The position numbers were made by a program, and so were the translations under genes. A stretch of 64,000 bases of DNA. Source: Achromobacter sp. UMC46. Its GTDB lineage: Bacteria > Pseudomonadota > Gammaproteobacteria > Burkholderiales > Burkholderiaceae_B. This document shows, one piece after another, positions 44,475 through 60,710 of this stretch. Within the stretch, counting starts at the first letter, position 1, and each line of letters starts with the position of its first letter. The notes under the pieces are model-generated. The model worked only from the letters and a program-made list of their open reading frames with translations. It had not been told where the DNA came from and ran no database searches. Location of the stretch: assembly GCF_014170335.1 (NCBI RefSeq), contig NZ_LZZS01000040.1, positions 124,001 through 188,000 of the forward strand, in the 5' to 3' direction.

Positions 44475-44858
44475 TCACGCCGCCAGCGCGAACATCGATT
44501 TCTGCGGCGTGGCCGCCTTGAAGCCCGGCGTGTTGATGGTGTTCTGCACTGTCAGGCTGGTCACGCGGACAAGGGGGGCGGCACGCACGAGCACCGTGAA
44601 CGCCCCGGTCATGTAGCGCGCCTGACCCATGAAGGTCTGAGAGATCACGCCTCCGCCCACGCCAGCGGTATCGCCCAAGGTGACGGGGATCGGCGTGACC
44701 ATGTTGTGCATCGGCGCGCAGCACAGCCACACGTTCCAGACCACGGGGATGCCCATGGACGACGTCGACACGTCGATATGCGGCACGGGCAGCACGGGGG
44801 TCTTGCAGACGTCGGGGAATCCTAGGCCGACGCTGGGCAACTGGCAGAGCACTTGCAT
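44475..44858 (-). CDS. DUF4150 PAAR-like T6SS tip protein
   Basis: ATG 44858 follows AGGAGTGG and gives 127 residues. The Pro/Gly-rich sequence (LPSVGLGFPDVCKTPVLP, GIPVVWNVWLCCAPMHN, DTAGVGGGVISQTFMG) matches the DUF4150 PAAR-like family that caps VgrG spikes. It ends right after the domain, so no toxin is fused. It is the last gene of the vgrG arm, 46 bases after the second pentapeptide gene, and converges on ccsB. Confidence 0.85.
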   Translation of the reverse strand: MQVLCQLPSVGLGFPDVCKTPVLPVPHIDVSTSSMGIPVVWNVWLCCAPMHNMVTPIPVTLGDTAGVGGGVISQTFMGQARYMTGAFTVLVRAAPLVRVTSLTVQNTINTPGFKAATPQKSMFALAA

Positions 44859-44904
44859 GTTTTCCACTCCTGGTGCGATGGCGATGCAGCGATGCTGCAC
44901 CGGG

Positions 44905-45963
44905 TCAAGGGGTTGCGCGGGCGGCCGACCACAGTTCGGCTTCCAGCAGCGGCGCGTCGTTTTCGATGATGCCGTGGCGCTGCGTCCAACGCGCGCCGCG
45001 CGTCAGCGCGCGGTGCATGCGCGTGCGCAGGAAGGTGGCGTCGCGCAGGTCGGCGCGGCTCAGGTCGGCCAGTGAGAAATCGGCGTCGACAAGATGGGCG
45101 CCGCGAAAGTCCGTGTCGGCGCAACACGCGCGCTGGAAGATGCACAGGGACAGGCTGGCGCCTTGGAGGGTTGCGCCATCCAGGGTCGCCCCGGCCCAGA
45201 TGGCGCCGTCGAAACGGCCGTTGCGCAGGTCGGCGCCGGTCAGGTCGGCCAGCGGGAATAGCGCCTGAGGCGCGGAGACGCCGGTAAAGCGCGCACCCCG
45301 CAGGGACGATCCTTTGAAACCCGCCTGGCGCAGGTCGGCATTGCGGAAGTCCGCGGCGTCCAGTTGGCAGTCCGTGAAATGGCACAGCGGAAACGCGCGA
45401 CCGGAAAAGTCCTGCTCCGACAGATTGCATTCGATGAACATCGTGCTGGCGGCGTTGGCGCCTGCCAGCGTGACGCTGCGCAGGTCCAGCTGATGGAACA
45501 GGGTGTCGCTGGCCTGGGTGTTGGACAGGTCAGCGCCTGCCAGTGCGCCGCGCGAGAATACCGAGCGTTGCAGCCGGGCGGACTGCAGCGAGGCGCCCTC
45601 CAACGAGGTGGCGGTAAAGGTCGATTCATGAAAGTCGGCGTGGTCCAGCCTGGCGCCTGAAAAGTCACATTCCGTGAAGCTGGCGCCATGGAACCGGCCG
45701 CCGCCGAGCATGGCGCCCGGAGCCCGGCAGCGCATCAGGCGCGCCGTGTCCAGATTGGCGCGGGCGGCTTCCCAGCGCGTCATCACGCAATTGAGGAACT
45801 GGCTGTCCTGCAACTGGCAGTCGCCCATTCGCGTACCGCTGAAGTCCACGTGATCGAAGAACGCGCCAGCCAGGTCCAGGCCGGAGAGGTCGGCGCCCGC
45901 AAGGCTGAGGTGCTGGATCGGCTCGCCATGGCGAACGCGATCCATCAACGTGTCGGGGGTCAT
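44905..45963 (-). CDS. Pentapeptide-repeat protein of the T6SS accessory arm
   Basis: ATG 45963 overlaps the upstream stop by four bases and gives 352 residues. From about residue 18 to 330 nearly the whole protein is tandem A(D/N)LxX-type pentapeptides (LAGADLSGLDLAGA, DLTGADLRNGRFDGA), predicting a right-handed quadrilateral beta helix of about 15 coils. There is no signal peptide, membrane segment or catalytic motif. Pentapeptide proteins often accompany DUF2169 and DUF4150 genes beside vgrG; the role there, in effector loading or the spike complex, is unproven. Confidence 0.85.
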   Translation of the reverse strand: MTPDTLMDRVRHGEPIQHLSLAGADLSGLDLAGAFFDHVDFSGTRMGDCQLQDSQFLNCVMTRWEAARANLDTARLMRCRAPGAMLGGGRFHGASFTECDFSGARLDHADFHESTFTATSLEGASLQSARLQRSVFSRGALAGADLSNTQASDTLFHQLDLRSVTLAGANAASTMFIECNLSEQDFSGRAFPLCHFTDCQLDAADFRNADLRQAGFKGSSLRGARFTGVSAPQALFPLADLTGADLRNGRFDGAIWAGATLDGATLQGASLSLCIFQRACCADTDFRGAHLVDADFSLADLSRADLRDATFLRTRMHRALTRGARWTQRHGIIENDAPLLEAELWSAARATP

Positions 45964-48590
45964 GCGGGGCTCTCCGGCTGTCTGGCAGGCCAGCGCTTGG
46001 CGCCCTGCGTGTACGAGTCGCTCAGCCCGGTGCTGTCGTCCATCCGCGTCTGCGCGACGTCGGCGCGGAAGAAATTCGCGCCGTCGAGGTCTGCGCCCAG
46101 GAAGATGGCCTTGCCCAGCAGGCTGTTGATCAGGGTGGCGTTGCGCAGGCATGCACCGGTGAAGTCCGCGCGTACGAAGTGCGTATCGGGGGCGGCGAGG
46201 CCGCCGAGGTCGGCGTCTTGCAGGCGGCATTCCGAGAAGTCGCTGGCGTTCAGTCTGGCGCCGCGCATGTCGGCGCCGGTCAGCGTGGCGCCGCGCGCAC
46301 TGCCATGCGTGAACTGCATGCCGCGCAAGCGGGCGCCGGCCAGCTCGACGCGGCCCGCGAAGGCGCAGCCGTCCAGGGTCGCGTCTTCCATGCTGAAACC
46401 GCTGGAGAAGGCCACGTCCATGAAGCTCACGCGCACCAACGCGGCGCCGGTGAAATCGGCGTTAACGAGCGCGCCTTGCATGAATACGCACTGATCCAAC
46501 CGCGCGCCCTGAAAGCGGCAGTCTTCCAGCGTCGCGCTCATGGCAGCCCATTGGCTGAAGGATGCGCGGCCAAGGTCGCAGCGCAACAGCCGCGCTTGGT
46601 GCAGGCGCCCCTGCCGCCATGCGCTATCGAGAAAGCTGCAGTCTTCACAGTGAGCATGGTCCCATGTGGCTTCGCTGATTTGGCATTCTGCGAAGTCGGT
46701 CTGCAGGCAGCGCGTGCGCCCCAGATTGGTGCGCGTCAGGTTGACGCGGCGCAGGCCGGTCCGGGTCAGGTCGGCGCCGGTCAGCACCGCGTCGGTGAGA
46801 TCGCTGCCGTCCAGTCGCGCATCGACGAGCGTTGCCCCCGCCAGAATCGCGCGTTGAAAATTGACGCCGGCAAGGTCCATGCCCGACAGGTCCGCGCCGG
46901 TGAGGTTCATGTCCCGACAGTCGCGGTTGTCTTTCAATCGTGCATCCAGTTTTCGGCGGGTGCGCTGAGCGCGCAGCGGCGGCATGGGTGGAGGCGGGGC
47001 AAAATGGTGCGCGGATTGTTGATAGGCCTGGTGAACCTGGGGACCGAGCGTGTCAGCCAGCGGAGGTGCCGTGCCCTCGGCATCGGCCGCCGCGCGTCCG
47101 GCCTGAGCATGGGGGCTGCGATCGAACTCGGCCAGATGCCGCTTTATCTTGCGGGGATCGAAACCGGTCGTGAGCTTGCCGTCGTCTTCCTGCCGGCGCA
47201 GCGCGTCCAAGTCCAAGCCGGCCACGTCGGCCATGACTGGCAGGCTGGGATCAGCCAGCGCCCGCGCTGCGGGCCCACTGGACAGTCTCCTGGCTTCTTC
47301 CAGCTCATGCTGCATGCGCAGGATCGTCTGCGGCAGGTCGGCGAGCCTGGGCGCCGTTGGCGGCGGATCCAAAGGTGCCATGTACAGGTCAGGGTCCAGG
47401 CCCTGCGCCAGCAGCGATTCGCGTTCGCGCGCGTGGCGGCGTGCGGCGCCGGCATGGATGTTCCGGTTGGAAGGGCGCACGGCCAGGGCCTGCGCGTCGC
47501 CCTCAGGCCGTCCGCCGCAGATGTCGTCCGGCACAAGTTGCGCGTCCAGCAACGCATAGACGGCGCCCAGTTCAGGGTTCAGGCGCTGCCGCACCACGCC
47601 TTCATAGTGGGCCGTGTCCTTCGGCTGGTCGGCGTGTTCCAGCGCGGGCATGATGTGGCGGATGTCCGCCGCGTCGTCTTCGCGCACATGCAGGGCGCCA
47701 TGCCAGATCAGCACTATCTTCGCGTGGTCGGGGAAGAACCAGGCCGTGCCCAGGCCCAGGCCGACTTCTTCAAGCGCGCCGCCGTCGGCCAGGCGGCTGA
47801 CGAAGCAGCGGGCACGCCAGTCGGGCAGCCGGCCGCGTATCACCGGCTGTTCCGGGTGCATGTTCCACAGCTCGTATTCCGTGCCGCCGGCAAGCGCCGT
47901 GTTTGCAGGCCCCCATTGGTCGGGCTGGGCCGCGTTGAAGAAGCGCCAATCCATATCGGGCGCGAACCCGGGGAAGTCGTGCTCAAGCCATTCCTGGCCA
48001 TACTCGCGGCCCATGTGCGCCGCCCGTTGCGGCCACTCCAGGGGCAACGCGGAAAAGCCCGCTGGCGCCACTCGCTGCCCGGGGGCGTCGATCCGTTGCA
48101 GCGGGTGCTCGACGTTCGGCAGCCGCCGCACGCGCACGCCGTTGATGTCTTCGTCTTGCGCTCCGATGCCCAGCGGGTTCTCGGCAATGTCAGGTCCGCC
48201 GTAAGCGCGGCTCCAGTCCAAGCGCATGCGCTCGAACGGTTGCGGCGCGGTGGCCTTGCCGTCGACCCAGTAGCGGTCGCCGAACACCAGCAGCGATTTG
48301 TCTATCGCACCGACTTTCAAGCGCACGCCGCAGGCGCCAGAGCTCTTGGGATCATGCGGGTAGGCATGGCCCGAGACCAGCACTTCCGGGTGCTGTTTCG
48401 GCGTGGCCAGGTCCAGCGCGCCGATGCCTTCGGCGGCCACGAGCGTCCACAGCTCCTGCTCGGTCGACAAGGCGACCGTGTCGCGCGCGATGTCGACCAG
48501 CGCGAAGACCGACACGCCCAGCAGGTCGCGCCGTTGCCAGCGATAGGGCCTGGTGAGTATGCCCAGGCGGAAAGGCTTGATGGTCTTCAT
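45960..48590 (-). CDS. DUF2169 domain fused to pentapeptide repeats, T6SS accessory protein
   Basis: An 876-residue fusion. Residues about 1-330 form a DUF2169 domain (KPFRLGILTRPYRWQRRDLL, RLDWSRAYGGPDIAENPLG, GFSALPLEWPQRAAHMG). A charged, Pro-rich middle section covers about 350-550, and pentapeptide repeats about 553-865 (NLTGADLSGMDLAGVNFQRA). DUF2169 proteins are linked to T6SS vgrG islands and thought to assist effector or tip assembly. It overlaps the next pentapeptide gene by ATGA and starts 3 bases after the small membrane-protein gene. Confidence 0.85.
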   Translation of the reverse strand: MKTIKPFRLGILTRPYRWQRRDLLGVSVFALVDIARDTVALSTEQELWTLVAAEGIGALDLATPKQHPEVLVSGHAYPHDPKSSGACGVRLKVGAIDKSLLVFGDRYWVDGKATAPQPFERMRLDWSRAYGGPDIAENPLGIGAQDEDINGVRVRRLPNVEHPLQRIDAPGQRVAPAGFSALPLEWPQRAAHMGREYGQEWLEHDFPGFAPDMDWRFFNAAQPDQWGPANTALAGGTEYELWNMHPEQPVIRGRLPDWRARCFVSRLADGGALEEVGLGLGTAWFFPDHAKIVLIWHGALHVREDDAADIRHIMPALEHADQPKDTAHYEGVVRQRLNPELGAVYALLDAQLVPDDICGGRPEGDAQALAVRPSNRNIHAGAARRHARERESLLAQGLDPDLYMAPLDPPPTAPRLADLPQTILRMQHELEEARRLSSGPAARALADPSLPVMADVAGLDLDALRRQEDDGKLTTGFDPRKIKRHLAEFDRSPHAQAGRAAADAEGTAPPLADTLGPQVHQAYQQSAHHFAPPPPMPPLRAQRTRRKLDARLKDNRDCRDMNLTGADLSGMDLAGVNFQRAILAGATLVDARLDGSDLTDAVLTGADLTRTGLRRVNLTRTNLGRTRCLQTDFAECQISEATWDHAHCEDCSFLDSAWRQGRLHQARLLRCDLGRASFSQWAAMSATLEDCRFQGARLDQCVFMQGALVNADFTGAALVRVSFMDVAFSSGFSMEDATLDGCAFAGRVELAGARLRGMQFTHGSARGATLTGADMRGARLNASDFSECRLQDADLGGLAAPDTHFVRADFTGACLRNATLINSLLGKAIFLGADLDGANFFRADVAQTRMDDSTGLSDSYTQGAKRWPARQPESPA

Positions 48591-48593
48591 GGT

Positions 48594-49007
48594 TTATCCG
48601 GTGAGCTGATCCACGGCGACCTCATGCGTGGCGGCATCCACGCGCACTTGCACGGTCTTGCCCACGCCGTAGTCGGCCAGATGCAGCGGCGACAGGGCGA
48701 CGCTGAGCCTGCGCGACAAGGCAGGGGTGGCGGCCGTGGCGGCTACGTCAAGATCCAGCTCGATGATGAAATACAGGGCCTCGCCGATGCGGCTGCGCGT
48801 GTCGCGCGCAGCGGTGATTCGCGCCGTGCTGGCCACCCCGCTGGCGCGCAGGGCCTCCTGCCGCTGCGCGTCCTTGCGCTCCGCCGCCCGGCGCTTGTGT
48901 CCGCGCCGGAGCATGAACCCCGCCTGCACGCAAGACAGCAGCAAGGCCAGCCAGACCCACTTCGCCCAATCCGGCCAGGCTGCCAGGAAGTCCGACATGG
49001 AAGCCAT
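48594..49007 (-). CDS. Single-pass membrane protein coupled to vgrG, unknown function
   Basis: ATG 49007 shares one base with the vgrG stop (TGATG), favouring this start over ATG 48998; the product is 137 residues. One transmembrane helix (WAKWVWLALLLSCVQAGFML) is followed by a basic, Ala-rich helix. A small beta domain comes last (ASGVASTARITAARDTRSRI ... VGKTVQVRVDAATHEVAV), resembling DUF3592-like folds. No known immunity or adaptor motif is recognised. Position between vgrG and DUF2169 suggests a part in this T6SS. Confidence 0.7.
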   Translation of the reverse strand: MASMSDFLAAWPDWAKWVWLALLLSCVQAGFMLRRGHKRRAAERKDAQRQEALRASGVASTARITAARDTRSRIGEALYFIIELDLDVAATAATPALSRRLSVALSPLHLADYGVGKTVQVRVDAATHEVAVDQLTG

Positions 49008-51394
49008 CAGATGATGGACCAGAGGCCGACCATCGATGCGCCCAGGCCGACCTGCTCTGCTTTCTGAAGGTCGAACGCGTAGCTGGACCCCGTGGTGCGG
49101 TAGGAAACCATCTGGCCGATGCTGCTGACCATCGCGTAGTTGGTAAAAGACAGGTTCAACATGACCGTGGAATGGAACAGCGCGACGCGGTGGGTGCCGA
49201 ACTCCGCCTTGGCCACAGTCAGGCCGATGGAGAACGGCGTGGCCTGCAGCCAACTTTCTTTGGAAAGGTCCTTCACGTTGGCGGCGTCCATCACCACGTC
49301 CGCCGGCGTTTTCAGGGTGATGTGGCCGTCGGCCTTGATCATCACGGTGGAGCCTTCGGACTCCATGTGCATCTTGCCCTTGGACTTGAGGTCCATCGTG
49401 GCGGTTTCCGACTGCACGAGCATCGCGGTCTTGGCCTTCACATCCATGTCCGCATCGGTGGAGCGCAGTTCGACCTTGCCCTTCGCCTTCTCGGTCAGCG
49501 TGCCCGCTTTGACGTGATGCAGCGAATCGCCTTCGTCAACAAACACTTGCTGGCCCGTCTTCAGGGTTTCCTTGAACAACCCTTTGACCTCGCGTTCTTC
49601 GCCCTTGGCGGCGACGGTCGTCTTCAAGCCGTTGTCGAACTTCTCTTCCATCAGGCCGTCCTTCACGTTGACGGTGCGCGATGCCTTGACGGTGTATTCC
49701 TCATGCCCCTTGACGAAGACGTCGCGGCGTTTGCCGACCTCGAGCTTGTCGGTGCCCGTGATCTTGATGTCGCGGAAGCCGCCGATCTTGGTGGTGTCGT
49801 TTTCGCCGATGGTGGTGTCGCGGTTCAGGTCCGTCGAGTGGATCTCGTTGGCTTCGACCTCGGTGCAGAGCTCGCGCTCCGCGTGCAGCCAGATGCGTTC
49901 GCTGCCGCTCTTGTCGTCGAACATCAACGCATTGGCGGTCGCGGGCGTGCCGCTCTTGGAGCGGCTCAGGAAGCCGCTTTGCGTCGCATTGTCGGGCAGG
50001 TCCCAGGGCGGCAGGTTGTTCGCGTTGAACACGCGGCCGATCACGATGGGGCGGTCGGGCTGGCCGCCGATGAAATCCACGATCACTTCGTCGCGCACGC
50101 GCGGCAGCTGGATGCCGCCGAAGCCGCCGCCGGCCCACGGGCTGGACACGCGGACCCAGCACGAGCTGTTTTCGTCTTTCTTGCCATAGCGGTCCCAGTG
50201 GAACTGCACCTTCACGCGGCCCATCTTGTCCGTCCAGATCTCTTCGCCCTGCTTGCCCACGACCGTCGCGGTCTGAGGGCCGTGCGTGCGGGGGACCGGC
50301 GTGACGCGCGGCGCGCGGAACTGCGTGCTGGAGGGCAGCACGACGAACTCCAGATCGAAGTCGCCCGGGTCGATCTGGCCGCTGGCATAACCCGATTCGC
50401 GGATCCGGTAGTAGGTGCTGACGACGAGATATTCGCGGTTCTCGGCTTGCCGCGGATGATTGCGAAGGGTGAAGAGATGTCCGGTGGAGAGCCCGCGCGC
50501 ATTGGAAGCCCCCGTGCTCTGCTCCTGCCTGCATTGCAGGTCTTGCAGGCGGACGCGCGCATAGTGCTCGGCGTCGTCAGGGTTGGTGTAGCCGCCCTGC
50601 CATTCGTACATCTCCAGGTCGCCGTGGTCGTAGGCGCCGGGATTGTTGCGCCGCGCCTCCAGGCTGGCGGCGGGCGTCAGCGGATGGTAGTCGGTGGTGG
50701 CGAATGCGCCGGGCGTGATCTGTTCGGCGACTTCCCATTTGTGGATGTAGTCTTCGCGCGGGACCGTGACGCGGTCAGGGCCGTAGTAGGGGATCTGCTC
50801 GTAGTCGGCAACGGGCTCATGTTGCGTGATGTCGTCCGTGAGGATCAGCGTGTGCTTGCCGTTGTCGTGCTTGAACCAGAAGTAGATGCCCTCGTGCTCC
50901 ATCAGCCGGCAGATGAAGGCGTAGTCGGTCTCTTGGTACTGCACGCAGTACTCCCAGCTGCGGTAGGTGTCCGTCAACTTGAACTCCACCGGATAGCTGT
51001 AGTCCTTGAGCACCTCGCGGATGACGTCGGGCACGCTCTTGTTCTGGAAGATCTTGTTGTCCGACGTCTGCGTCAGGTACCAGAGCCAAGGGCGCACCGT
51101 GGCGCGGTAGATGGTGTAGCGCGACGTATTGTTCTCGCGGCCGATCAGCATGCAGCGCGTGATGTGCCCGCTGAGATAGCGCGGCGTGGACGAGGCGGTC
51201 TCGACCTCTAGCGTCAGCGGCTTGCCCAGCAGCGATTTCATGTCCAGCGAATAGGATTCCGAGACCAGCTCGACCTCCAGTTCGAATAGCTGCGAAAGGC
51301 TCTCGGCGCCATGGACGCTCCGGAACTTCAGTTGCTCCGGCGGCAAGGGCGTATGCGCCTTGACGACACGTTCGCTTGGCACATTGCGATCCAT
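49007..51394 (-). CDS. vgrG: T6SS spike protein VgrG (TssI)
   Basis: A 795-residue VgrG starting at ATG 51394 after AAGGAG. Gp27-like base (about 1-370, with DYAFICRLMEHEGIYFWF), gp5-like OB fold (GPQTATVVGKQGEEIWTDKM, GRVKVQFHWDRYGK, SPWAGGGFGGIQLPRVRDEV), then a repetitive beta-helix needle to about residue 710. The last 80 or so residues (starting near ATPFSIGLTVAKAEFG) are hydrophobic, Gly/Ser-rich and not part of the needle pattern. It is the first gene of the leftward arm, divergent from tssA. Confidence 0.96.
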   Translation of the reverse strand: MDRNVPSERVVKAHTPLPPEQLKFRSVHGAESLSQLFELEVELVSESYSLDMKSLLGKPLTLEVETASSTPRYLSGHITRCMLIGRENNTSRYTIYRATVRPWLWYLTQTSDNKIFQNKSVPDVIREVLKDYSYPVEFKLTDTYRSWEYCVQYQETDYAFICRLMEHEGIYFWFKHDNGKHTLILTDDITQHEPVADYEQIPYYGPDRVTVPREDYIHKWEVAEQITPGAFATTDYHPLTPAASLEARRNNPGAYDHGDLEMYEWQGGYTNPDDAEHYARVRLQDLQCRQEQSTGASNARGLSTGHLFTLRNHPRQAENREYLVVSTYYRIRESGYASGQIDPGDFDLEFVVLPSSTQFRAPRVTPVPRTHGPQTATVVGKQGEEIWTDKMGRVKVQFHWDRYGKKDENSSCWVRVSSPWAGGGFGGIQLPRVRDEVIVDFIGGQPDRPIVIGRVFNANNLPPWDLPDNATQSGFLSRSKSGTPATANALMFDDKSGSERIWLHAERELCTEVEANEIHSTDLNRDTTIGENDTTKIGGFRDIKITGTDKLEVGKRRDVFVKGHEEYTVKASRTVNVKDGLMEEKFDNGLKTTVAAKGEEREVKGLFKETLKTGQQVFVDEGDSLHHVKAGTLTEKAKGKVELRSTDADMDVKAKTAMLVQSETATMDLKSKGKMHMESEGSTVMIKADGHITLKTPADVVMDAANVKDLSKESWLQATPFSIGLTVAKAEFGTHRVALFHSTVMLNLSFTNYAMVSSIGQMVSYRTTGSSYAFDLQKAEQVGLGASMVGLWSII

Positions 51395-53590: not shown

Positions 53591-55093
53591 ATGACCGCAG
53601 TGGCCAAACGCGCTGACGCGCGTGCTGTCGAGACCCTGGAGGCGGACGGCCTGTCCGCGCTTCTGAAGAAAGAGTTCAAGCCCAAGACCGAGCAGGCACG
53701 CGTCGCGGTGGAACACGCCGTGCGAACCCTGGCGCACCAGGCGCTGGAGAACAGCGGTGTCGGCCTGTCGTCGGATGCCTATCGCACCATCCAGGCGATC
53801 ATCGCCGAGATCGACCGCAAACTGTCCGAACAGATCAACGGCGTGATGCATCATCCCGATTTCCAGCAACTGGAAGGCGCCTGGCGCGGGCTGCATTACC
53901 TCGTCACCAACACCGAAACCGACGAGCTGCTGAAGATCCGCGTGATGAGCCTGTCGAAATCCGAGCTGGGGCGAACCCTCAAGCGCCACAAGGGCGTGGG
54001 CTGGGACCAGAGCCCCATCTTCAAGCGCGTGTACGAGGAAGAGTACGGCCAGTTCGGCGGCGAGCCGATCGGCTGCCTGGTGGGTGATTACCACTTCGAC
54101 CACAGTCCGCCAGATGTGGAGCTGCTGGGCGAGATCGCCAAGATTTCGTCCGCGGCCCATTGCCCCTTCATCGCAGGCGCATCACCCAATGTGATGCAGA
54201 TGGATTCGTGGCAGGAACTGGCGAATCCGCGCGACTTGACCAAGATCTTCACCAACACCGAGTACGCGGCGTGGCGCAGCCTGCGCGAGTCCGAGGATTC
54301 GCGCTACATCGGATTGGCGATGCCGCGCTTCCTTGCCCGCCTGCCCTACGGCGCGCGCACCAATCCGGTCGACGAGTTCGACTTCGAGGAAGACACCGAC
54401 GGCGCGAACCACGACCGCTACACCTGGGCCAATTCCGCTTACGCCATGGCGGCCAACGTCAACCGGTCGTTCAAGCTGTACGGCTGGTGCACGTCGATCC
54501 GCGGCGTGGAGTCGGGCGGCGCGGTGGAGAACCTTCCGTGCCACAGCTTTCCCAGCGATGACGGCGGCGTCGACATGAAGTGCCCGACCGAGATCGCGAT
54601 CAGCGACCGGCGCGAAGCCGAGCTGGCGAAGAACGGTTTCATGCCGCTGGTGCATCGCAAGAACTCAGACTTCGCGGCGTTCATCGGCGCACAGTCCTTG
54701 CAGAAGCCGCACGAGTACTACGAGGCGGACGCGTCCGCCAATGCCAAGCTGGCCGCGCGCCTGCCGTACCTGTTCGCATGCTGCCGCTTCGCCCACTACC
54801 TGAAGTGCATCGTGCGCGACAAGATCGGCTCGTTCCGCGAACGCGACGACATGGAGCGGTGGCTGAACGACTGGATCATGAATTATGTGGACGGCGACCC
54901 GGTGAACTCGTCCCAGGAAACCAAGGCGCGCAAGCCGCTGGCGGCCGCCGAGGTGCAAGTGCAGGAGATCGAGGACAACCCGGGCTATTACTCCGCCAAG
55001 TTTTTCCTTCGGCCGCACTATCAGCTTGAAGGGCTGACGGTGTCGCTGCGGCTGGTGTCCAAGCTGCCTTCGCTCAAGCAGAACGAAGGTTGA
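53591..55093 (+). CDS. tssC: T6SS sheath large subunit TssC (VipB)
   Basis: The 500-residue sheath protein shows the family blocks FQQLEGAWRGLHYLV, SRYIGLAMPRFLARLPYG, YAMAANVNRSFKLYGWCTSI and a C-terminal FFLRPHYQLEGLTVSLRLVS. It assembles with TssB around the Hcp tube; ClpV recycles it. Start ATG 53591 follows a GGAG site. Confidence 0.97.
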   Translation: MTAVAKRADARAVETLEADGLSALLKKEFKPKTEQARVAVEHAVRTLAHQALENSGVGLSSDAYRTIQAIIAEIDRKLSEQINGVMHHPDFQQLEGAWRGLHYLVTNTETDELLKIRVMSLSKSELGRTLKRHKGVGWDQSPIFKRVYEEEYGQFGGEPIGCLVGDYHFDHSPPDVELLGEIAKISSAAHCPFIAGASPNVMQMDSWQELANPRDLTKIFTNTEYAAWRSLRESEDSRYIGLAMPRFLARLPYGARTNPVDEFDFEEDTDGANHDRYTWANSAYAMAANVNRSFKLYGWCTSIRGVESGGAVENLPCHSFPSDDGGVDMKCPTEIAISDRREAELAKNGFMPLVHRKNSDFAAFIGAQSLQKPHEYYEADASANAKLAARLPYLFACCRFAHYLKCIVRDKIGSFRERDDMERWLNDWIMNYVDGDPVNSSQETKARKPLAAAEVQVQEIEDNPGYYSAKFFLRPHYQLEGLTVSLRLVSKLPSLKQNEG

Positions 55094-55143: not shown

Positions 55144-55629
55144 GTGGCTGTGGATATGTTCATGAAAATCGATGGGGCCAACGGCGAATCCAAGGACGCC
55201 AACCACAAGGACTGGACCGACATCGTGTCGTTCTCGTGGGGCGCGACCCAACCCGGCAATCTGGCCAGCGGTGGCGGCCTGGGCGCGGGCAAGGCGAGCT
55301 TCAACGACCTGCACGTGGTGGCGCGCATCGACAAGGCGGCGCCTGCCGTGATGAAGCACTGCGCCAGCGGCAAGCACCTGGGCAAGATCGAATTGTCCAT
55401 GTGCAAGGCGGGCGGCGAGCAGGTCGAATACTCGAAGATCACGCTGGAAGACGTGCTGGTGTCCTCGGTGCAGATCTCGGGAGACCGCAGCGCCGAGGGC
55501 GTAGTGGTGAACTTCGCGTTCCAGGCCGCCAAGGTCAAGCAGCAGTACTGGGAGCAGACCGAAAAGGGCGGCAAGGGTGCCGAAAGCCTCGTCGCCTGGG
55601 ATATCAAGCAGAACAAGGAAGTGGGCTAA
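55144..55629 (+). CDS. hcp: T6SS tube protein Hcp (TssD)
   Basis: The 161-residue Hcp1-family protein starts with GTG 55144 (MAVDMFMKIDGANGESKDAN); an overlapping ATG two bases earlier is out of frame. CCAGGAGAC supplies the ribosome binding site. It forms stacked hexamers of the secreted tube. The intergenic distance of 50 bases from tssC is normal for strong, separately tuned expression. Confidence 0.96.
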   Translation: MAVDMFMKIDGANGESKDANHKDWTDIVSFSWGATQPGNLASGGGLGAGKASFNDLHVVARIDKAAPAVMKHCASGKHLGKIELSMCKAGGEQVEYSKITLEDVLVSSVQISGDRSAEGVVVNFAFQAAKVKQQYWEQTEKGGKGAESLVAWDIKQNKEVG

Positions 55630-56460: not shown

Positions 56461-57011
56461 TGGGCCACGCCGACGATCCCACCGGCTGGGCGCCGCTTGC
56501 GCGCAGTCAACGCGCGGCCCGGGATCGCCTGCAGCCATCGTTGCTGGACCGCCTGATGGACAACGATCCGGCCCGCCGCGCGGAGCCGCGCGACAGCGCC
56601 ATGCTGACGCATGAGCAGCTGCGCGCGGCCGTGCTGCGGGATCTGCGCTGGTTGCTCAATACGGTCAATCTTCAGACATCGCAGGACTTGTCGGCGCATC
56701 ATCGCGTCGCGGCGTCGACGGTGAATTTCGGCGTGCGCGCCATGGCGGGAAAGCGCATGTCGGAGATCGACTGGATCGACGTGGAAGAGTCTATCCGCAA
56801 CGCGATTTCGGCATTCGAGCCGCGCATTCTGGATTCTTCGGTCGAGGTGCGTTGCGTGACCGACACCGGCACGCTGGAGCACCACAATGTGCTGAGCCTG
56901 GAGATCCGGGGCATGCTGTGGTGCGTGCCGCATCCGCTCGAATTCCTCTTCCGCACGGACATCGATCTGGAAAGCGGCCATATGGATCTGCGCGACCTGG
57001 GCGGCATCTGA
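56460..57011 (+). CDS. tssE: T6SS baseplate protein TssE (gp25-like)
   Basis: ATG 56460 (a GTG three bases earlier is also open) gives 183 residues. A gpW/gp25 lysozyme-like domain is seen in LRWLLNTVNLQTSQDLSAHH, STVNFGVRAMAGKRMSEIDW and the FEPRILDSSVEVRC core. It forms part of the baseplate wedge. Stop-start overlaps of one base exist with tagJ and tssF. Confidence 0.94.
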   Translation: MGHADDPTGWAPLARSQRAARDRLQPSLLDRLMDNDPARRAEPRDSAMLTHEQLRAAVLRDLRWLLNTVNLQTSQDLSAHHRVAASTVNFGVRAMAGKRMSEIDWIDVEESIRNAISAFEPRILDSSVEVRCVTDTGTLEHHNVLSLEIRGMLWCVPHPLEFLFRTDIDLESGHMDLRDLGGI

Positions 57012-58915
57012 TGGACGCCCGCTTGCTGGACTACTACAACCGCGAGCTCGTGTACCTGCGCGAACTGGGCGCGGAATTCGCGCAGGCCTATCCCAAGGTC
57101 GCCGGGCGGCTGGGCATGAACGCCACGGAAGTGGCCGACCCGTACGTCGAGCGCCTGCTTGAAGGCTTCAGTTTCCTGACCGCGCGGATCCAGATGAAGA
57201 TGGATGCGGAGTTTCCGCGCTTTTCCCAGCGTTTGCTCGAGGTGGTGTATCCCAACTACCTCGCGCCGACACCCGCGATGGCGATCGTGCAGTTCTCCCC
57301 CAGCATGAATGAAGGCACGCTGGCGGGAGGCTTCGAGTTGCCGCGCGGCACGTTGCTGCGCGGCCGCGTGCCGCGCGGCGAGCAGACGCCCTGCGAATTC
57401 ACGACAGGGCACGCCGTGCGGCTGTGGCCCTTGCAGGTGACCCAGGCCGAATTCACCGCCGCGCCGCAAGACTTGCCGCTGGCGCGGCTAGGCCTGGCGG
57501 GTCGCGCCGTACGCGTACTGAGCGCGCTGCGCATCCGGATCGAAGTGGGCGGCGGCCAGCGGCTGGAGGACCTGGACCTGGATCAGCTGGTCTTCCATCT
57601 GAACGGCCAGGACCTGCAGATGCAGCGCCTGCTGGAAGTGGTGATGGGACACACGGTGGCAGTGCTGGGCCACGACACGGCGCGGCCGGTCGCGTGGATC
57701 AACAAGCTGCCGGCCAGCGCGATCCGCCACGAAGGCTTTGCCGACGACCAGGCCTTGTTGCCGGGCGATGCGCGCGTGTTCCAGGGCTACCGCTTGCTGC
57801 AGGAGTACTTCGCGTTCGCGCAGCGTTTTCTGTTCTTCAGCGTCAATGGCTTGAAAGCCGGATTGCGCGGTGGGCCACAGCCGCAAGGCGTACCACGCGA
57901 AACCCGCGCTTTCGATCTGACCTTGCTGTTCTCCATGGCGGCGCCGGAGCTGGAGGGCGCGATATCGGCCGCCAACCTGGCCTTGCATTGCGCGCCGGTG
58001 ATCAACCTGTTCCCCAAGCGCGCGGACCGCGTGGCCGTCACGCCGCGGACGTCCGAGTATCACGTGGTGGTCGACCGCAGCCGTCCGCTGGACTACGAGG
58101 TCTTCGGCGTGACACGCGTTACCGGCCATGCGTCCGCGCAGCGGCAGGAACAGGAGTTCCGTCCGTTCTACGGGTCGCTGGGCAGCGACCCGGATGATTA
58201 CGGCGCGTACTTTTCCGTGCGCCGCGAGCCTCGGCTGATCTCGGACACGGCGCAGCGCAACGGCACGCGGACGGGCTACACGGGCAGCGAAGTGTTCCTG
58301 TCGCTGGTGGACCGCCAGGAAGCGCCGTTCTCCGGACAGTTGCGTCACCTGACGTTGGAGACGTTGTGCTCCAACCGGGACATGGCGATGCTGCTGCCGC
58401 TGGGCACCGAGACGGACATGACGTTGCGCGTGTCGGCGCCCGTGCGCGCGGTGAAGGTGCTGCACGGGCCGACCCGTCCTTGTCCGGCGCTGGCCGAGAA
58501 CGCCGCTACCTGGCATCTGATCAGCCACTTGGGCCTGAACTATCTGAGCCTGACGGACCTGGACACGGAGCAGGGCGCTCAGACGCTGCGCGAGATGCTC
58601 CACGTCTATGGCAACCTTGCGGACCCCGCGGTGCGCAAGCACATCTCGGGCTTGCGGCACGTCAGCGCCGTGCCCGTGCATCACCGCCTGCCGGTGCCCG
58701 GTCCCATCGTCCATGGACGCGGCGTTCGCATCGCGCTGCAGGTGGACGAGGCAGCCTTTTCCGGCATCAGCCCTTATTTGTTTGGCGCCGTGCTTGAACA
58801 GTTTTTTGCGCGCCATGTCTCGATCAACATGATGTCGGAGCTGGTCCTGTCGACCCTGCAGCGCGGCGAAGTCGCCCGCTTCAAGCCCCGCATGGGGCGC
58901 CGGCCCGCGGTCTAG
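57011..58915 (+). CDS. tssF: T6SS baseplate protein TssF (ImpG)
   Basis: The 634-residue protein begins MDARLLDYYNRELVYLRELG, the TssF hallmark, with DPYVERLLEGFSFLTARIQM and a C-terminal YLFGAVLEQFFARHVSINM. It builds the baseplate wedge with TssE, TssG and TssK. The coding frame is open further upstream but the overlap TGATG with tssE fixes the start. It is separated from tssG by an inserted DUF3540 gene. Confidence 0.95.
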   Translation: MDARLLDYYNRELVYLRELGAEFAQAYPKVAGRLGMNATEVADPYVERLLEGFSFLTARIQMKMDAEFPRFSQRLLEVVYPNYLAPTPAMAIVQFSPSMNEGTLAGGFELPRGTLLRGRVPRGEQTPCEFTTGHAVRLWPLQVTQAEFTAAPQDLPLARLGLAGRAVRVLSALRIRIEVGGGQRLEDLDLDQLVFHLNGQDLQMQRLLEVVMGHTVAVLGHDTARPVAWINKLPASAIRHEGFADDQALLPGDARVFQGYRLLQEYFAFAQRFLFFSVNGLKAGLRGGPQPQGVPRETRAFDLTLLFSMAAPELEGAISAANLALHCAPVINLFPKRADRVAVTPRTSEYHVVVDRSRPLDYEVFGVTRVTGHASAQRQEQEFRPFYGSLGSDPDDYGAYFSVRREPRLISDTAQRNGTRTGYTGSEVFLSLVDRQEAPFSGQLRHLTLETLCSNRDMAMLLPLGTETDMTLRVSAPVRAVKVLHGPTRPCPALAENAATWHLISHLGLNYLSLTDLDTEQGAQTLREMLHVYGNLADPAVRKHISGLRHVSAVPVHHRLPVPGPIVHGRGVRIALQVDEAAFSGISPYLFGAVLEQFFARHVSINMMSELVLSTLQRGEVARFKPRMGRRPAV

Positions 58916-58945
58916 GCCGGCCCCCGCCACAAAGAGGATCGCGTG

Positions 58946-59602
58946 ATGAAATCCGCCGCTAGCTTGAACCGCATGGCCTACGACCCCGTCCACCTGTTGG
59001 GCGAGGTGCTGCGCTGTGAACCCGATGGAAGCTTTGCCGTGGCCTGCGATGGGCGCGCATGGTCCGCACGGCGCGCCGCCAGCTGCCTGCTGGCGCCGCA
59101 GCCGGGTGACGAAGTGCTGATCAGCGGACCCGACCCGTCGCGGGTCTATCTGATTGCGGTGACCGTGCAGGCGGAACCCGCGCATGCCACGTTGGAGACA
59201 CAGGGCGAACTGGTGCTGCGGTCGCTGGGTGGCAACGTGCTGGTGCAGAGCGCGGGCGAGGTGATGCTGCAAGGGCAGGGCGCCGTGCGCGTGCGCACGC
59301 CGGAATACGCGGTCGAGGCCGACGACGAACGCCACGCATGCAAGCGCGTGCGCATGGTCGCCGAACAATTGCATGCCACCATCGGCGAGACGAGGCTGGC
59401 GGGCCGCAGCTATGAAGCCGTGCTGGACCGTATGACGTTGATGGCGCGCCTGTCGATGCGCAGCGTGAGCGAGGTGGAGCAGGTGCGAGCCGGGTCCATC
59501 GACTACCAGGCCGAGCAGACCGCGCGGCTGCACGCGTCCTATACGCTGGTGACGGGCGCCGACCTCGTCAAGGTGGACGCCAAGCAGATCCACATGGGGT
59601 GA
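58946..59602 (+). CDS. DUF3540 protein inserted in the T6SS core operon
   Basis: ATG 58946 after GAGG gives 218 residues (a GTG one codon earlier is also open). The N-terminal 65 residues look like a small OB-type beta domain (VLRCEPDGSFAVACDGRAWS, LLAPQPGDEVLISGPDPSRV). Short beta repeats follow (VLRSLGGNVLVQSAGEVMLQ), then a helical section, and the end KQIHMG resembles a VgrG needle tip. This matches DUF3540, usually found with DUF2169/DUF4150 in vgrG islands. Here it lies between tssF and tssG. Function unknown; a spike or adaptor role is inferred. Confidence 0.82.
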   Translation: MKSAASLNRMAYDPVHLLGEVLRCEPDGSFAVACDGRAWSARRAASCLLAPQPGDEVLISGPDPSRVYLIAVTVQAEPAHATLETQGELVLRSLGGNVLVQSAGEVMLQGQGAVRVRTPEYAVEADDERHACKRVRMVAEQLHATIGETRLAGRSYEAVLDRMTLMARLSMRSVSEVEQVRAGSIDYQAEQTARLHASYTLVTGADLVKVDAKQIHMG

Positions 59603-59606
59603 CGCG

Positions 59607-60710
59607 GTGGACGTCACGCAACCCGCAGTTGATCCGGTTTCCCCCGGCGCCGCTTTGTCCGAAGCCCGCGCGCAGTGGTGGCGCGCGCTTGAGCGCGAGC
59701 CCTACGCGCACGACCTGTTCCATGCGCTGCGCTGGATCGATGCGCATGCCGGCGCGCGCAAGCCGCTGGGGCGCGACACGGTTGCGCGCTACGAGCCCGT
59801 GCGCCTGCGGCAGGAACCCTCGATGGCGTTCGCGCCGTCTACCGTGGCGCGCGCCCAGGCGGGCCACAACGGCCGGCCGGCGGAGGTCTCCATATACGGG
59901 TTCGGCCTATTCGGCCCCAACGGCCCCTTGCCGTTGCATCTGACCGAGCATGCCCATGAACGCATGGCGCATTACGGGGACCGCACCCTGGCGGCGTTTG
60001 CCGACGTGTTCCATCACCGGCTCATCCTGCTGTTCTATCGCGCCTGGGCCGACGCGCAGAGCACGGTCAGCCTGGACCGCAAGGAAGAGCGCTTCACGCG
60101 GTACGTGGCCAGCCTGCTGCACCTGGGCGAACCATCGATGCGGCGGCGCGACGCCGTGCTGGACCATGCCAAGTACTTCATGGCGGGGCATCTGGTGCGC
60201 CAGACCCGCAACCCCGAAGGCCTCAAGCACATTCTGCAATGGTTCTTCGGCCTGCCCGTTCGCATTTGCGAATTTGTGCCGCAATGGATCCGGCTTGAGC
60301 CGGAACAACGGCTTGGCTTGGGCGGCACGGCGGGCCTGGGGCGCGATACGGTGCTGGGCGTCGCGGTGCGCGATGCCCAGCACAAATTCCGCATCGAGAT
60401 CGGGCCGCTGACGCTGGAGGACTACACGAGCTTTCTGCCGGGCGGCTTGCGTGCGCAGCAATTGACGCATTGGGTCAGGCACTACGTCGGCGTGGAGCTG
60501 GCCTGGGACGTGCGCCCGGTGCTGCGCGCCGAGGACGCGGGCGGGCTGGCCCTGGGCGCTTCGCGGCCGCTGGGCTTGTCGGCATGGCTGGGCAAGCGCC
60601 AGCCTGCGCAGGGCGAGGCGCGCGACCTGTTGCTGGACTATGAACGCCGGGGGCAAACGCCGGCTCGTGGCCGCCCGCCGGCCCAACCTTCAAGGACCCC
60701 GCGCGCTTGA
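59607..60710 (+). CDS. tssG: T6SS baseplate protein TssG (ImpH)
   Basis: The 367-residue protein (GTG start) contains the TssG blocks YAHDLFHALRWIDAHAGARK, GLFGPNGPLPLHLTEHAHER and FADVFHHRLILLFYRAW. It joins TssF in the baseplate wedge. A ribosome binding site is not strong, and the gene begins four bases after the DUF3540 stop, suggesting coupling to it. The Pro/Arg-rich C-terminal tail is species-specific. Confidence 0.94.
   Translation: MDVTQPAVDPVSPGAALSEARAQWWRALEREPYAHDLFHALRWIDAHAGARKPLGRDTVARYEPVRLRQEPSMAFAPSTVARAQAGHNGRPAEVSIYGFGLFGPNGPLPLHLTEHAHERMAHYGDRTLAAFADVFHHRLILLFYRAWADAQSTVSLDRKEERFTRYVASLLHLGEPSMRRRDAVLDHAKYFMAGHLVRQTRNPEGLKHILQWFFGLPVRICEFVPQWIRLEPEQRLGLGGTAGLGRDTVLGVAVRDAQHKFRIEIGPLTLEDYTSFLPGGLRAQQLTHWVRHYVGVELAWDVRPVLRAEDAGGLALGASRPLGLSAWLGKRQPAQGEARDLLLDYERRGQTPARGRPPAQPSRTPRA

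What the first reader, a model, noticed from the sequence alone, without database searches (positions are those of the whole stretch)
58946..59602. DUF3540 gene embedded between tssF and tssG in the T6SS core operon
tssF and tssG encode directly interacting wedge subunits and are usually adjacent. Here a 218-residue DUF3540 protein separates them, starting 31 bases after tssF and ending 4 bases before tssG. DUF3540 normally travels with DUF2169, pentapeptide and DUF4150 genes; in this locus those sit in the opposite arm without it. Its OB-like N-terminus, short beta repeats and VgrG-like last residues suggest a spike-like or wedge-to-spike adaptor protein now expressed as part of the core. This is the best candidate for an undescribed component of this system.
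Basis: partly seen in the sequence, partly recalled or inferred. Interest (0 to 1): 0.7.

Follow-up and report, generated by a model that had tools for sequence, protein, structure and literature searches.

The report
Spike-assembly chaperone encoded among baseplate genes
A recently described helper protein (TvpC) that builds the tip of a bacterial toxin-injecting machine is here encoded in the middle of the machine's own baseplate genes instead of beside its usual partners, and in some related bacteria one such gene appears to serve several separate spike modules.

Summary
An intact 218-residue DUF3540 gene (58946-59602) lies 30 bases after tssF and 4 before tssG; it is the genome's only DUF3540 match. 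The spike-like reading is right, but "undescribed" is not: DUF3540 is TvpC of class III Tvp systems (EMBO J, May 2026, PMC13373197), a VgrG mimic on which the TvpAB-TvpB-PAAR cap forms before VgrG replaces it. The other class III parts lie in the divergent arm.

What seems new is the arrangement. In the window's family, 91 of 268 genomes carry DUF3540: in 30 it reads tssF-tvpC-tssG, in 45 it is attached to tssE/tssF. In those 45 genomes, 60 of 86 listed DUF2169 loci have no DUF3540 within 7 kb (16 of the 60 lie about 11 kb away in the same locus); in the other 46 DUF3540 genomes, 12 of 60. I fetched 20 of the 60: all hold vgrG, tvpAB and PAAR, none tvpC. G098 has one T6SS, two VgrGs, both in tvpC-less islands, and one TvpC, between tssF and tssG. 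So TvpC has moved to the core and probably serves several islands in trans, effectively obligatory there. Whether the wedge position itself matters is open; relocation history is a strong rival.

The parts
58946..59602 (+). tvpC (DUF3540), 218 aa, between tssF and tssG
   Evidence: Pfam PF12059 E 1.9e-51; only DUF3540 match in the genome; purifying selection
57011..58915 (+). tssF (baseplate wedge), ATG overlaps the tssE stop
   Evidence: Pfam PF05947 E 4.8e-228; start read
59607..60710 (+). tssG (baseplate wedge), GTG start 4 bases after tvpC
   Evidence: Pfam PF06996 E 2.7e-98, TIGR03347
56457..57011 (+). tssE (baseplate)
   Evidence: Pfam PF04965, TIGR03357
55642..56460 (+). tagJ / ImpE
   Evidence: Pfam PF07024 E 2.9e-36
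55144..55629 (+). hcp
   Evidence: Pfam PF05638 E 4.3e-37
53591..55093 (+). tssC
   Evidence: TIGR03355
53011..53559 (+). tssB
   Evidence: TIGR03358
51910..52971 (+). tssA
   Evidence: TIGR03363
60726..63344 (+). tssH (ClpV)
   Evidence: TIGR03345 1228 bits
49007..51394 (-). vgrG, 795 aa, the only VgrG match on the contig of this T6SS
   Evidence: Pfam GPD, Gp5 and OB domains; 4 GPD matches in the genome, the other 3 on contig C16 with the second T6SS
48594..49007 (-). 137-aa protein with one hydrophobic N-terminal segment, in the position of the Vai1 immunity gene
   Evidence: ORF and position; no Pfam match above cut-off; function inferred only
45960..48590 (-). tvpAB: DUF2169 + C-terminal pentapeptide repeats
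   Evidence: PF09937 E 9.2e-76, PF00805 E 7.8e-34
44905..46230 (-). tvpB: pentapeptide-repeat protein
   Evidence: PF00805 E 6.2e-43
44475..44900 (-). PAAR-like (DUF4150 / Tox-PAAR-like) tip, 141 aa, no other Pfam domain found
   Evidence: PF13665 E 5.8e-30; only match in the genome

Best explanation
The gene is tvpC of a class III Tvp spike-assembly system that sits in the baseplate-wedge operon instead of in the spike island. TvpC is a short VgrG mimic: OB domain plus beta-prism, no gp27 part. It offers its prism tip as a template on which the PAAR-like protein is capped by TvpAB and TvpB. The full-length VgrG then replaces TvpC and the machine can polymerise and fire (worked out for Serratia marcescens in PMC13373197; inferred here). 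In this lineage many vgrG-tvpAB-tvpB-paar islands carry no tvpC, so the core-encoded copy probably acts in trans on the Tvp islands of that T6SS. In the genomes that I could resolve (the window's, G005, G041, G093, G098, G104, G105), every VgrG not beside another T6SS is Tvp-type (leaving out one weak partial match in G104), so TvpC would be required for all activity of this T6SS: a core part in practice. Shown here: identity, gene order, distribution, islands without tvpC, conserved tip. Inferred: function in trans, which island serves which T6SS, and essentiality.
For: Family: PF12059 E 1.9e-51. All other class III parts in the divergent arm. 90 of 91 DUF3540 genomes also carry DUF2169, exception G169. 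tssF-tvpC-tssG in 30 of 91 genomes, five genus codes; any tssE/tssF link in 45 of 91. Of 150 DUF2169 places used (list cut by the tool; 4 in genomes without DUF3540), 60 of 86 in wedge-type genomes have no DUF3540 within 7 kb, 16 of them about 11 kb off in the same locus, against 12 of 60 in the other DUF3540 genomes. I picked 20 of the 60, from 13 genomes: 20 have vgrG, tvpAB and paar, 18 a separate tvpB, 0 tvpC. G098 (completeness 100, 8 contigs): 1 TssF, 2 VgrG, 2 DUF2169, 1 DUF3540, between tssF and tssG. In the single-contig G093, G104 and G105 the VgrGs not beside the other T6SS are two tvpC-less islands each, apart from a 49-bit partial match in G104. Tip KVDAKQIHMG in 23 of 28 distinct tssF-tvpC-tssG proteins, the other 5 with one substitution. 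dN/dS 0.11-0.21 in nine pairs. AlphaFold monomer: five strands at residues 15-74 in an OB-like pattern, ten-residue block means of 90 or more from 21 to 140.
Against: No experiment in any wedge-type species was found. The last 68 residues are low confidence in the monomer model. Sequence similarity to VgrG is weak (P 0.015; OB half alone 0.0049) and no PDB match is significant (E 0.09-0.7). 15 of 45 wedge genomes also carry a canonical tvpC, so trans action is not forced there; G099, with one T6SS and two VgrGs, is such a case. Some islands without tvpC also occur in genomes without a wedge copy (12 of 60, 11 of 46 genomes; in 10 of these 11 the DUF2169 contig holds no DUF3540, so assembly breaks may explain them). 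Tvp islands could also serve the second T6SS where there is one. TvpC evolves faster than TssF in nine of nine pairs.
Confidence: 0.75

Rival explanations
1. The position is a neutral relic (this concerns only the meaning of the position and can hold together with the identity given above). A whole module, tvpC-vgrG-tvpAB-tvpB-paar, once sat between tssF and tssG; the last four genes later left and tvpC stayed behind. TvpC works as in Serratia and its wedge position has no functional meaning.
For: The intermediate exists: tssF-tvpC-vgrG-tvpAB-tvpB-paar-tssG in L074 (Achromobacter sp. Marseille-Q4962) and L075 (Bordetella genomosp. 1), also in L239; tssF-tvpC-vgrG in 5 of 91 genomes. One origin of the wedge link, with two tvpC-vgrG relatives, is not rejected (AU p 0.56). 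tvpC leads the module elsewhere too (L071-L073, L100).
Against: tvpC stays joined to tssF where the operon ends just after it (Advenella L065, next gene on the other strand; in L066 and L068 no T6SS gene was recognised after it), and it lies between tssE and tssF in L081 and L204. Islands in many genomes lack their own copy.
Confidence: 0.45
2. TvpC here is a true baseplate component or wedge-to-spike adaptor that stays in the finished machine and contacts TssF/TssG directly.
For: Gene order; 4-base gap to tssG and no promoter- or terminator-like site in 58600-59900; two-hybrid TvpC-TssK contact in Serratia (PMC13373197, discussion read).
Against: In Serratia TvpC is absent from the VgrG-containing complex, and TssK is the only baseplate contact reported in the discussion read. 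No wedge-specific extra domain or change of tip was seen.
Confidence: 0.1
3. DUF3540 is the immunity protein of a pentapeptide effector, as TsiG is said to be for TseG in Pantoea ananatis.
For: Claim reported in PMC12873547 (passages read); the original paper was not found in the library.
Against: 20 of 20 islands fetched, 18 with a separate tvpB call, have no DUF3540 beside it, unusual for an immunity gene. OB-like model, VgrG-like tip and DUF2169 co-occurrence fit TvpC.
Confidence: 0.05
4. A decaying, redundant gene carried along in the operon.
For: Shortened beta region in Achromobacter aegrifaciens L053; faster evolution than tssF.
Against: No stop codons inside the matches of the 30 tssF-tvpC-tssG genomes; dN/dS 0.11-0.21, above that of tssG in only 6 of 9 pairs; tip near-invariant.
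Confidence: 0.03

Closest known systems
Class III Tvp system of Serratia marcescens Db10 (TvpAB, TvpB, TvpC, Paar1, VgrG1; PMC13373197)
   Same: All five parts by family: DUF3540, DUF2169+pentapeptide, pentapeptide, small PAAR-like protein, long VgrG (795 aa)
   Different: tvpC lies between tssF and tssG instead of inside the vgrG-paar island; the window's Tvp VgrG is the only one on the contig of its T6SS, whereas the paper describes Tvp VgrGs as one of at least two for that T6SS
DUF2169 synteny type C (PMC11883445, passages)
   Same: DUF2169 fused to pentapeptide repeats, with VgrG, DUF4150 and DUF3540 genes
   Different: There DUF3540 is counted as part of the DUF2169 cluster; here it is in the core operon
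Burkholderia T6SS-5 tagA/B-tagB-tagC-tagD (PMC6335564, passages)
   Same: TagC-5 is DUF3540, encoded in the T6SS cluster
   Different: Order is tssF-tssG-tssH-vgrG-tagA/B-tagB-tagC-tagD, the canonical island order
Class II TvpC (DUF6484), P. aeruginosa PA0096
   Same: OB fold plus short prism used as a VgrG mimic, by prediction (PMC13373197)
   Different: Another domain family, much shorter prism, no TvpB

Membership tests
Class III Tvp system | DUF3540-type TvpC | tested here: met
   PF12059 E 1.9e-51, profile 8-199 of 199
Class III Tvp system | TvpA with DUF2169 and C-terminal pentapeptide extension | tested here: met
   PF09937 at residues 21-297; best pentapeptide stretches between 562 and 796
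Class III Tvp system | Separate pentapeptide-repeat TvpB | tested here: met
   44905-46230 (-), PF00805 E 6.2e-43
Class III Tvp system | Small DUF4150-type PAAR without effector domain | tested here: met
   141 aa, PF13665 covers residues 26-126, no other Pfam family
Class III Tvp system | TvpC fold: OB domain plus beta-prism, trimer, no gp27 domain | tested here: inconclusive
   Monomer model shows five OB-like strands; no prism strands assigned, last 68 residues low confidence; fold search switched off. No GPD match in the protein
Class III Tvp system | Canonical island order vgrG-tvpAB-tvpB-tvpC-paar (usual, not stated as defining) | tested here: not met
   tvpC at 58946-59602 between tssF and tssG
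[quoted passage not shown]
   One VgrG on C40; the other three on C16 with the second T6SS; sharing between the two T6SSs cannot be excluded
Class III Tvp system | TvpC-TvpAB-TvpB-PAAR pre-complex, replaced by VgrG | not testable with these tools
   needs pull-downs
Novel baseplate subunit | Direct contact with TssF/TssG and presence in finished baseplate | not testable with these tools
   only gene order available

The most novel reading that the evidence does not exclude
In these T6SSs TvpC has become a constitutive core part. Made together with TssF and TssG, its trimer acts as a stand-in hub on which wedges and the TvpAB-TvpB-PAAR cap gather, and it then accepts VgrG from any of several unlinked islands. 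One shared placeholder would thus make the baseplate a universal socket for interchangeable spikes.
Probability: 0.3. Interest if true: 0.7.

Novelty: new variant of a known kind. Interest (0 to 1): 0.48.

Why it matters
The 2026 Tvp paper leaves open how and where VgrG replaces TvpC; its direct evidence for a baseplate contact is one two-hybrid interaction. A lineage in which tvpC is fixed among the wedge genes, while many spike islands lack it, is independent comparative evidence for a baseplate-side role and gives clean test systems: in G098-like genomes a single deletion should silence both VgrGs at once. It also argues against reading DUF3540 as an immunity protein.

Tried and rejected
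Undescribed component: rejected, because DUF3540 is TvpC. Uniqueness of the arrangement: rejected by surveys. Independent repeated origin of the wedge link: not established. One clade is not rejected (p 0.56); adding the far tssF-tvpC pair L215/L219 gives p 0.0535, and long branches meet there. Outside the family, an order sample of 399 genomes had 25 with a match. Five of those are in the window's family (its own genome counted) and four are weak, with no tvpC call of mine. Of the remaining 16, 15 read tvpB-tvpC-paar and one vgrG-tvpC (L260), none wedge-linked; those loci have only 1.5 kb flanks and one further match had no locus. In the genus of Serratia sp. M24T3, 5 of 6 genomes had a match, all five tvpB-tvpC-paar. 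I hoped to meet the Db10 protein there, to map its mutated residues directly, and did not (tried its numbering on Enterobacterales proteins without a fit). The mapping of Db10 D199/D204/D206/I208/V210 onto window D206/D211/K213/I215/M217 is therefore my inference from spacing. A profile search of the PDB gave nine matches, none significant, one of them an unrelated Alba protein. No phylum-wide genome survey and no metagenome survey was made, apart from the capped scan.

Limits of the counts: neighbours were assigned with HMMs that I built from the window proteins and their loci, best score winning. An earlier pass missed tvpC in several loci through its overlap filter; one search mended that. 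The DUF2169 list was cut by the tool, so 150 places were used. A gene over 400 bases away was not counted as a neighbour. The 20 islands fetched were picked by me out of 60, not at random. One fragment with stops (L217) was dropped. The 177 distinct TvpC proteins were thinned to 146 and then to 53, chosen by hand, for the trees. The named set (80 of 100 confirmed loci) leans towards relatives of the query. A first dN/dS count took in about ten codons upstream of the tvpC start; one search repeats it from the ATG and is the one used.

Full report
WHAT IS THERE. The ORF at 58946-59602 (+) encodes 218 residues. It matches DUF3540 (PF12059) over nearly the whole profile, E 1.9e-51. The operon reads tssA-tssB-tssC-hcp-tagJ-tssE-tssF-tvpC-tssG-tssH. 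Beyond the window follow tssJ, tssK, tssL (with OmpA domain), tssM and tagF, with an ORF before tssJ that has no Pfam match and that my HMM set labels tagH. The tssE stop and tssF start overlap. The gap tssF-DUF3540 is 30 bases with an AGAGGA motif upstream of the ATG, and the gap to tssG is 4 bases. No promoter- or terminator-like site was found in 58600-59900. On the other strand lie vgrG, a 137-aa ORF, DUF2169+pentapeptide, pentapeptide and a PAAR-like gene. The genome has one DUF3540, one DUF2169, one Tox-PAAR-like, two TssF and four VgrG (GPD) matches. Three of the VgrGs lie on contig C16 with the second T6SS, where tssF and tssG are adjacent (L248).

WHAT THE FAMILY IS. Full-text search finds six papers with DUF3540, five listed. 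PMC13373197 (29 May 2026; abstract, sections 8, 9, 10, 12, 13 and passages read) names it TvpC of class III Tvp systems. In Serratia it is essential for the VgrG1 pathway and forms a pre-complex with TvpAB, TvpB and Paar1. It was not found together with VgrG1, is predicted to be a trimer with an OB fold and beta-prism but no gp27 domain, and contacts TssK in a two-hybrid assay. PMC11883445 (passages) reports the same gene set as DUF2169 synteny type C. PMC6335564 (passages) lists it as TagC-5 of Burkholderia T6SS-5, with tssF and tssG adjacent. PMC5870977 (passage) notes it in a Taylorella variable region. PMC12873547 (passages) cites a Pantoea study that calls it an immunity protein.

STRUCTURE AND TIP. 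The AlphaFold2 monomer (66-sequence alignment) has mean pLDDT 79, pTM 0.57. Five strands at 15-74 give an OB-like pattern; ten-residue block means are 90 or more for residues 21-140 and 47-65 for the last 68. No prism strands are assigned, which is what a prism modelled without its trimer partners might look like (inference). Profile comparison with 18 class III-type VgrGs is weak but in register: TvpC 50-74 against the end of the VgrG OB domain, P 0.015 for the whole protein, 0.0049 for the N-terminal part; eight column shuffles gave P 0.15 at best, the reversed alignment 0.47. A PDB profile search gave nine matches at E 0.09-0.7, none significant; six are named as, or recalled by me as, spike or tail-tip proteins (VgrG twice, a type VI protein, Afp8, Pvc8, gp86), one is an Alba protein, two have uninformative names. 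The C-terminal tip is KVDAKQIHMG in 23 of 28 distinct tssF-tvpC-tssG proteins, with one substitution in the other five. In the paper the tip residues I208 and V210 hold the PAAR and D199, D204 and D206 face the cap. By spacing I map these to window I215, M217, D206, D211 and K213; this mapping is inferred, and one acidic position has become lysine.

DISTRIBUTION. Genus: 16 of 43 genomes have DUF3540, 14 as tssF-tvpC-tssG, one as tssF-tvpC-vgrG, three in the tvpB-tvpC context, two of these in addition to the wedge copy. Family: 91 of 268 genomes. I fetched the places outside the genus and annotated them. By genome: tssF-tvpC-tssG 30, tssF-tvpC-vgrG 5, tssF-tvpC with nothing recognised within 400 bases after it 8, tssE-tvpC-tssF 2; 45 genomes with some wedge link, 49 canonical, 15 both. 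Named examples with tssF-tvpC-tssG are 19 of the 80 named loci: Achromobacter L046-L053 and L064, Bordetella L054-L062, Schauerella L063. Outside the family, none of 16 order-level genomes with a usable match is wedge-linked.

HISTORY. In the 53-protein tree the eleven tssF-tvpC-tssG proteins form one group (bootstrap 72, SH-aLRT 90), in the larger quick tree they need two changes. The wedge-linked proteins other than L215/L219, with two tvpC-vgrG relatives, are compatible with one clade (AU p 0.56). L074, L075 and L239 show the complete module tvpC-vgrG-tvpAB-tvpB-paar between tssF and tssG. The simplest history is insertion of a tvpC-first module between tssF and tssG, then departure of the other four genes. 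The tree alone does not give direction.

ISLANDS WITHOUT TVPC. 90 of 91 DUF3540 genomes also have DUF2169. Of the DUF2169 places listed, those without DUF3540 within 7 kb are 60 of 86 in wedge genomes (39 of 45 genomes) and 12 of 60 in other DUF3540 genomes (11 of 46, ten of them with the DUF2169 place on a contig that holds no DUF3540). Sixteen of the 60 lie about 11 kb away: 14 in the window's genus, on the strand opposite to tvpC as in the window, and one each in G104 and G105. I fetched 20 of the 60, from 13 genomes and by choice: all 20 have vgrG, tvpAB and paar, 18 a separate tvpB, none tvpC. Ten ORFs in or beside eight of these islands gave no TvpC-type Pfam match. In G098 the only T6SS has two VgrGs, both in such islands, and one TvpC, in the wedge operon. 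In the single-contig genomes G093, G104 and G105 the VgrGs not beside the other T6SS are two tvpC-less islands each, apart from a weak 49-bit partial match in G104. G005 and G041 of the genus resemble the window: one Tvp VgrG near the wedge T6SS, three at the other. Not clean cases among the 11 genomes searched: G099 (one T6SS; one island with and one without tvpC), G034, G038 and G035 (extra T6SS copies or VgrGs; G035 has 12), and G103, whose module lies behind tssF.

SELECTION. From the ATG on, dN/dS of tvpC against nine relatives is 0.108-0.208; for tssF 0.036-0.075, tssG 0.075-0.178. It is kept, but evolves faster than tssF in all nine pairs and than tssG in six.

READING. Identity as TvpC is solid. 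Trans service of several islands is a strong inference from gene content. A functional meaning of the wedge position is plausible but unproven: relocation history alone could explain it. Seven literature searches showed me no report of tssF-DUF3540-tssG or of tvpC-less Tvp islands; the library lacks most subscription papers, figures are not held, and of most listed papers I saw only the listing.

Noticed in passing
48594-49007 (-): 137-aa ORF between vgrG and tvpAB with one N-terminal hydrophobic segment, in the position and with a layout like that described for the Vai1 immunity protein of Serratia; no Pfam match above cut-off. ORFs in the same position of other islands are diverse (L292 weakly DUF3592, below cut-off).
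   Followed up: partly
49007-51394 (-): The VgrG is long (795 aa) with a repeat-rich stretch and a partly hydrophobic C-terminal tail, reminiscent of what is reported for Serratia VgrG1, which may itself carry the toxic activity (seen by eye).
   Followed up: no
   Followed up: partly
L215 and L219: A very divergent DUF3540 follows tssF in two small genomes; either a fast-evolving orthologue or a second acquisition (AU p 0.0535).
   Followed up: partly
L287, L293, L295, L297, L298, L300, L303: A second kind of tvpC-less island with about 3 kb between vgrG and tvpAB; the three ORFs scanned from L293 have no Pfam match above cut-off.
   Followed up: partly
L053: TvpC of Achromobacter aegrifaciens lacks about 39 residues of the beta region, and several relatives lack 8, suggesting the prism length is free to vary.
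   Followed up: no
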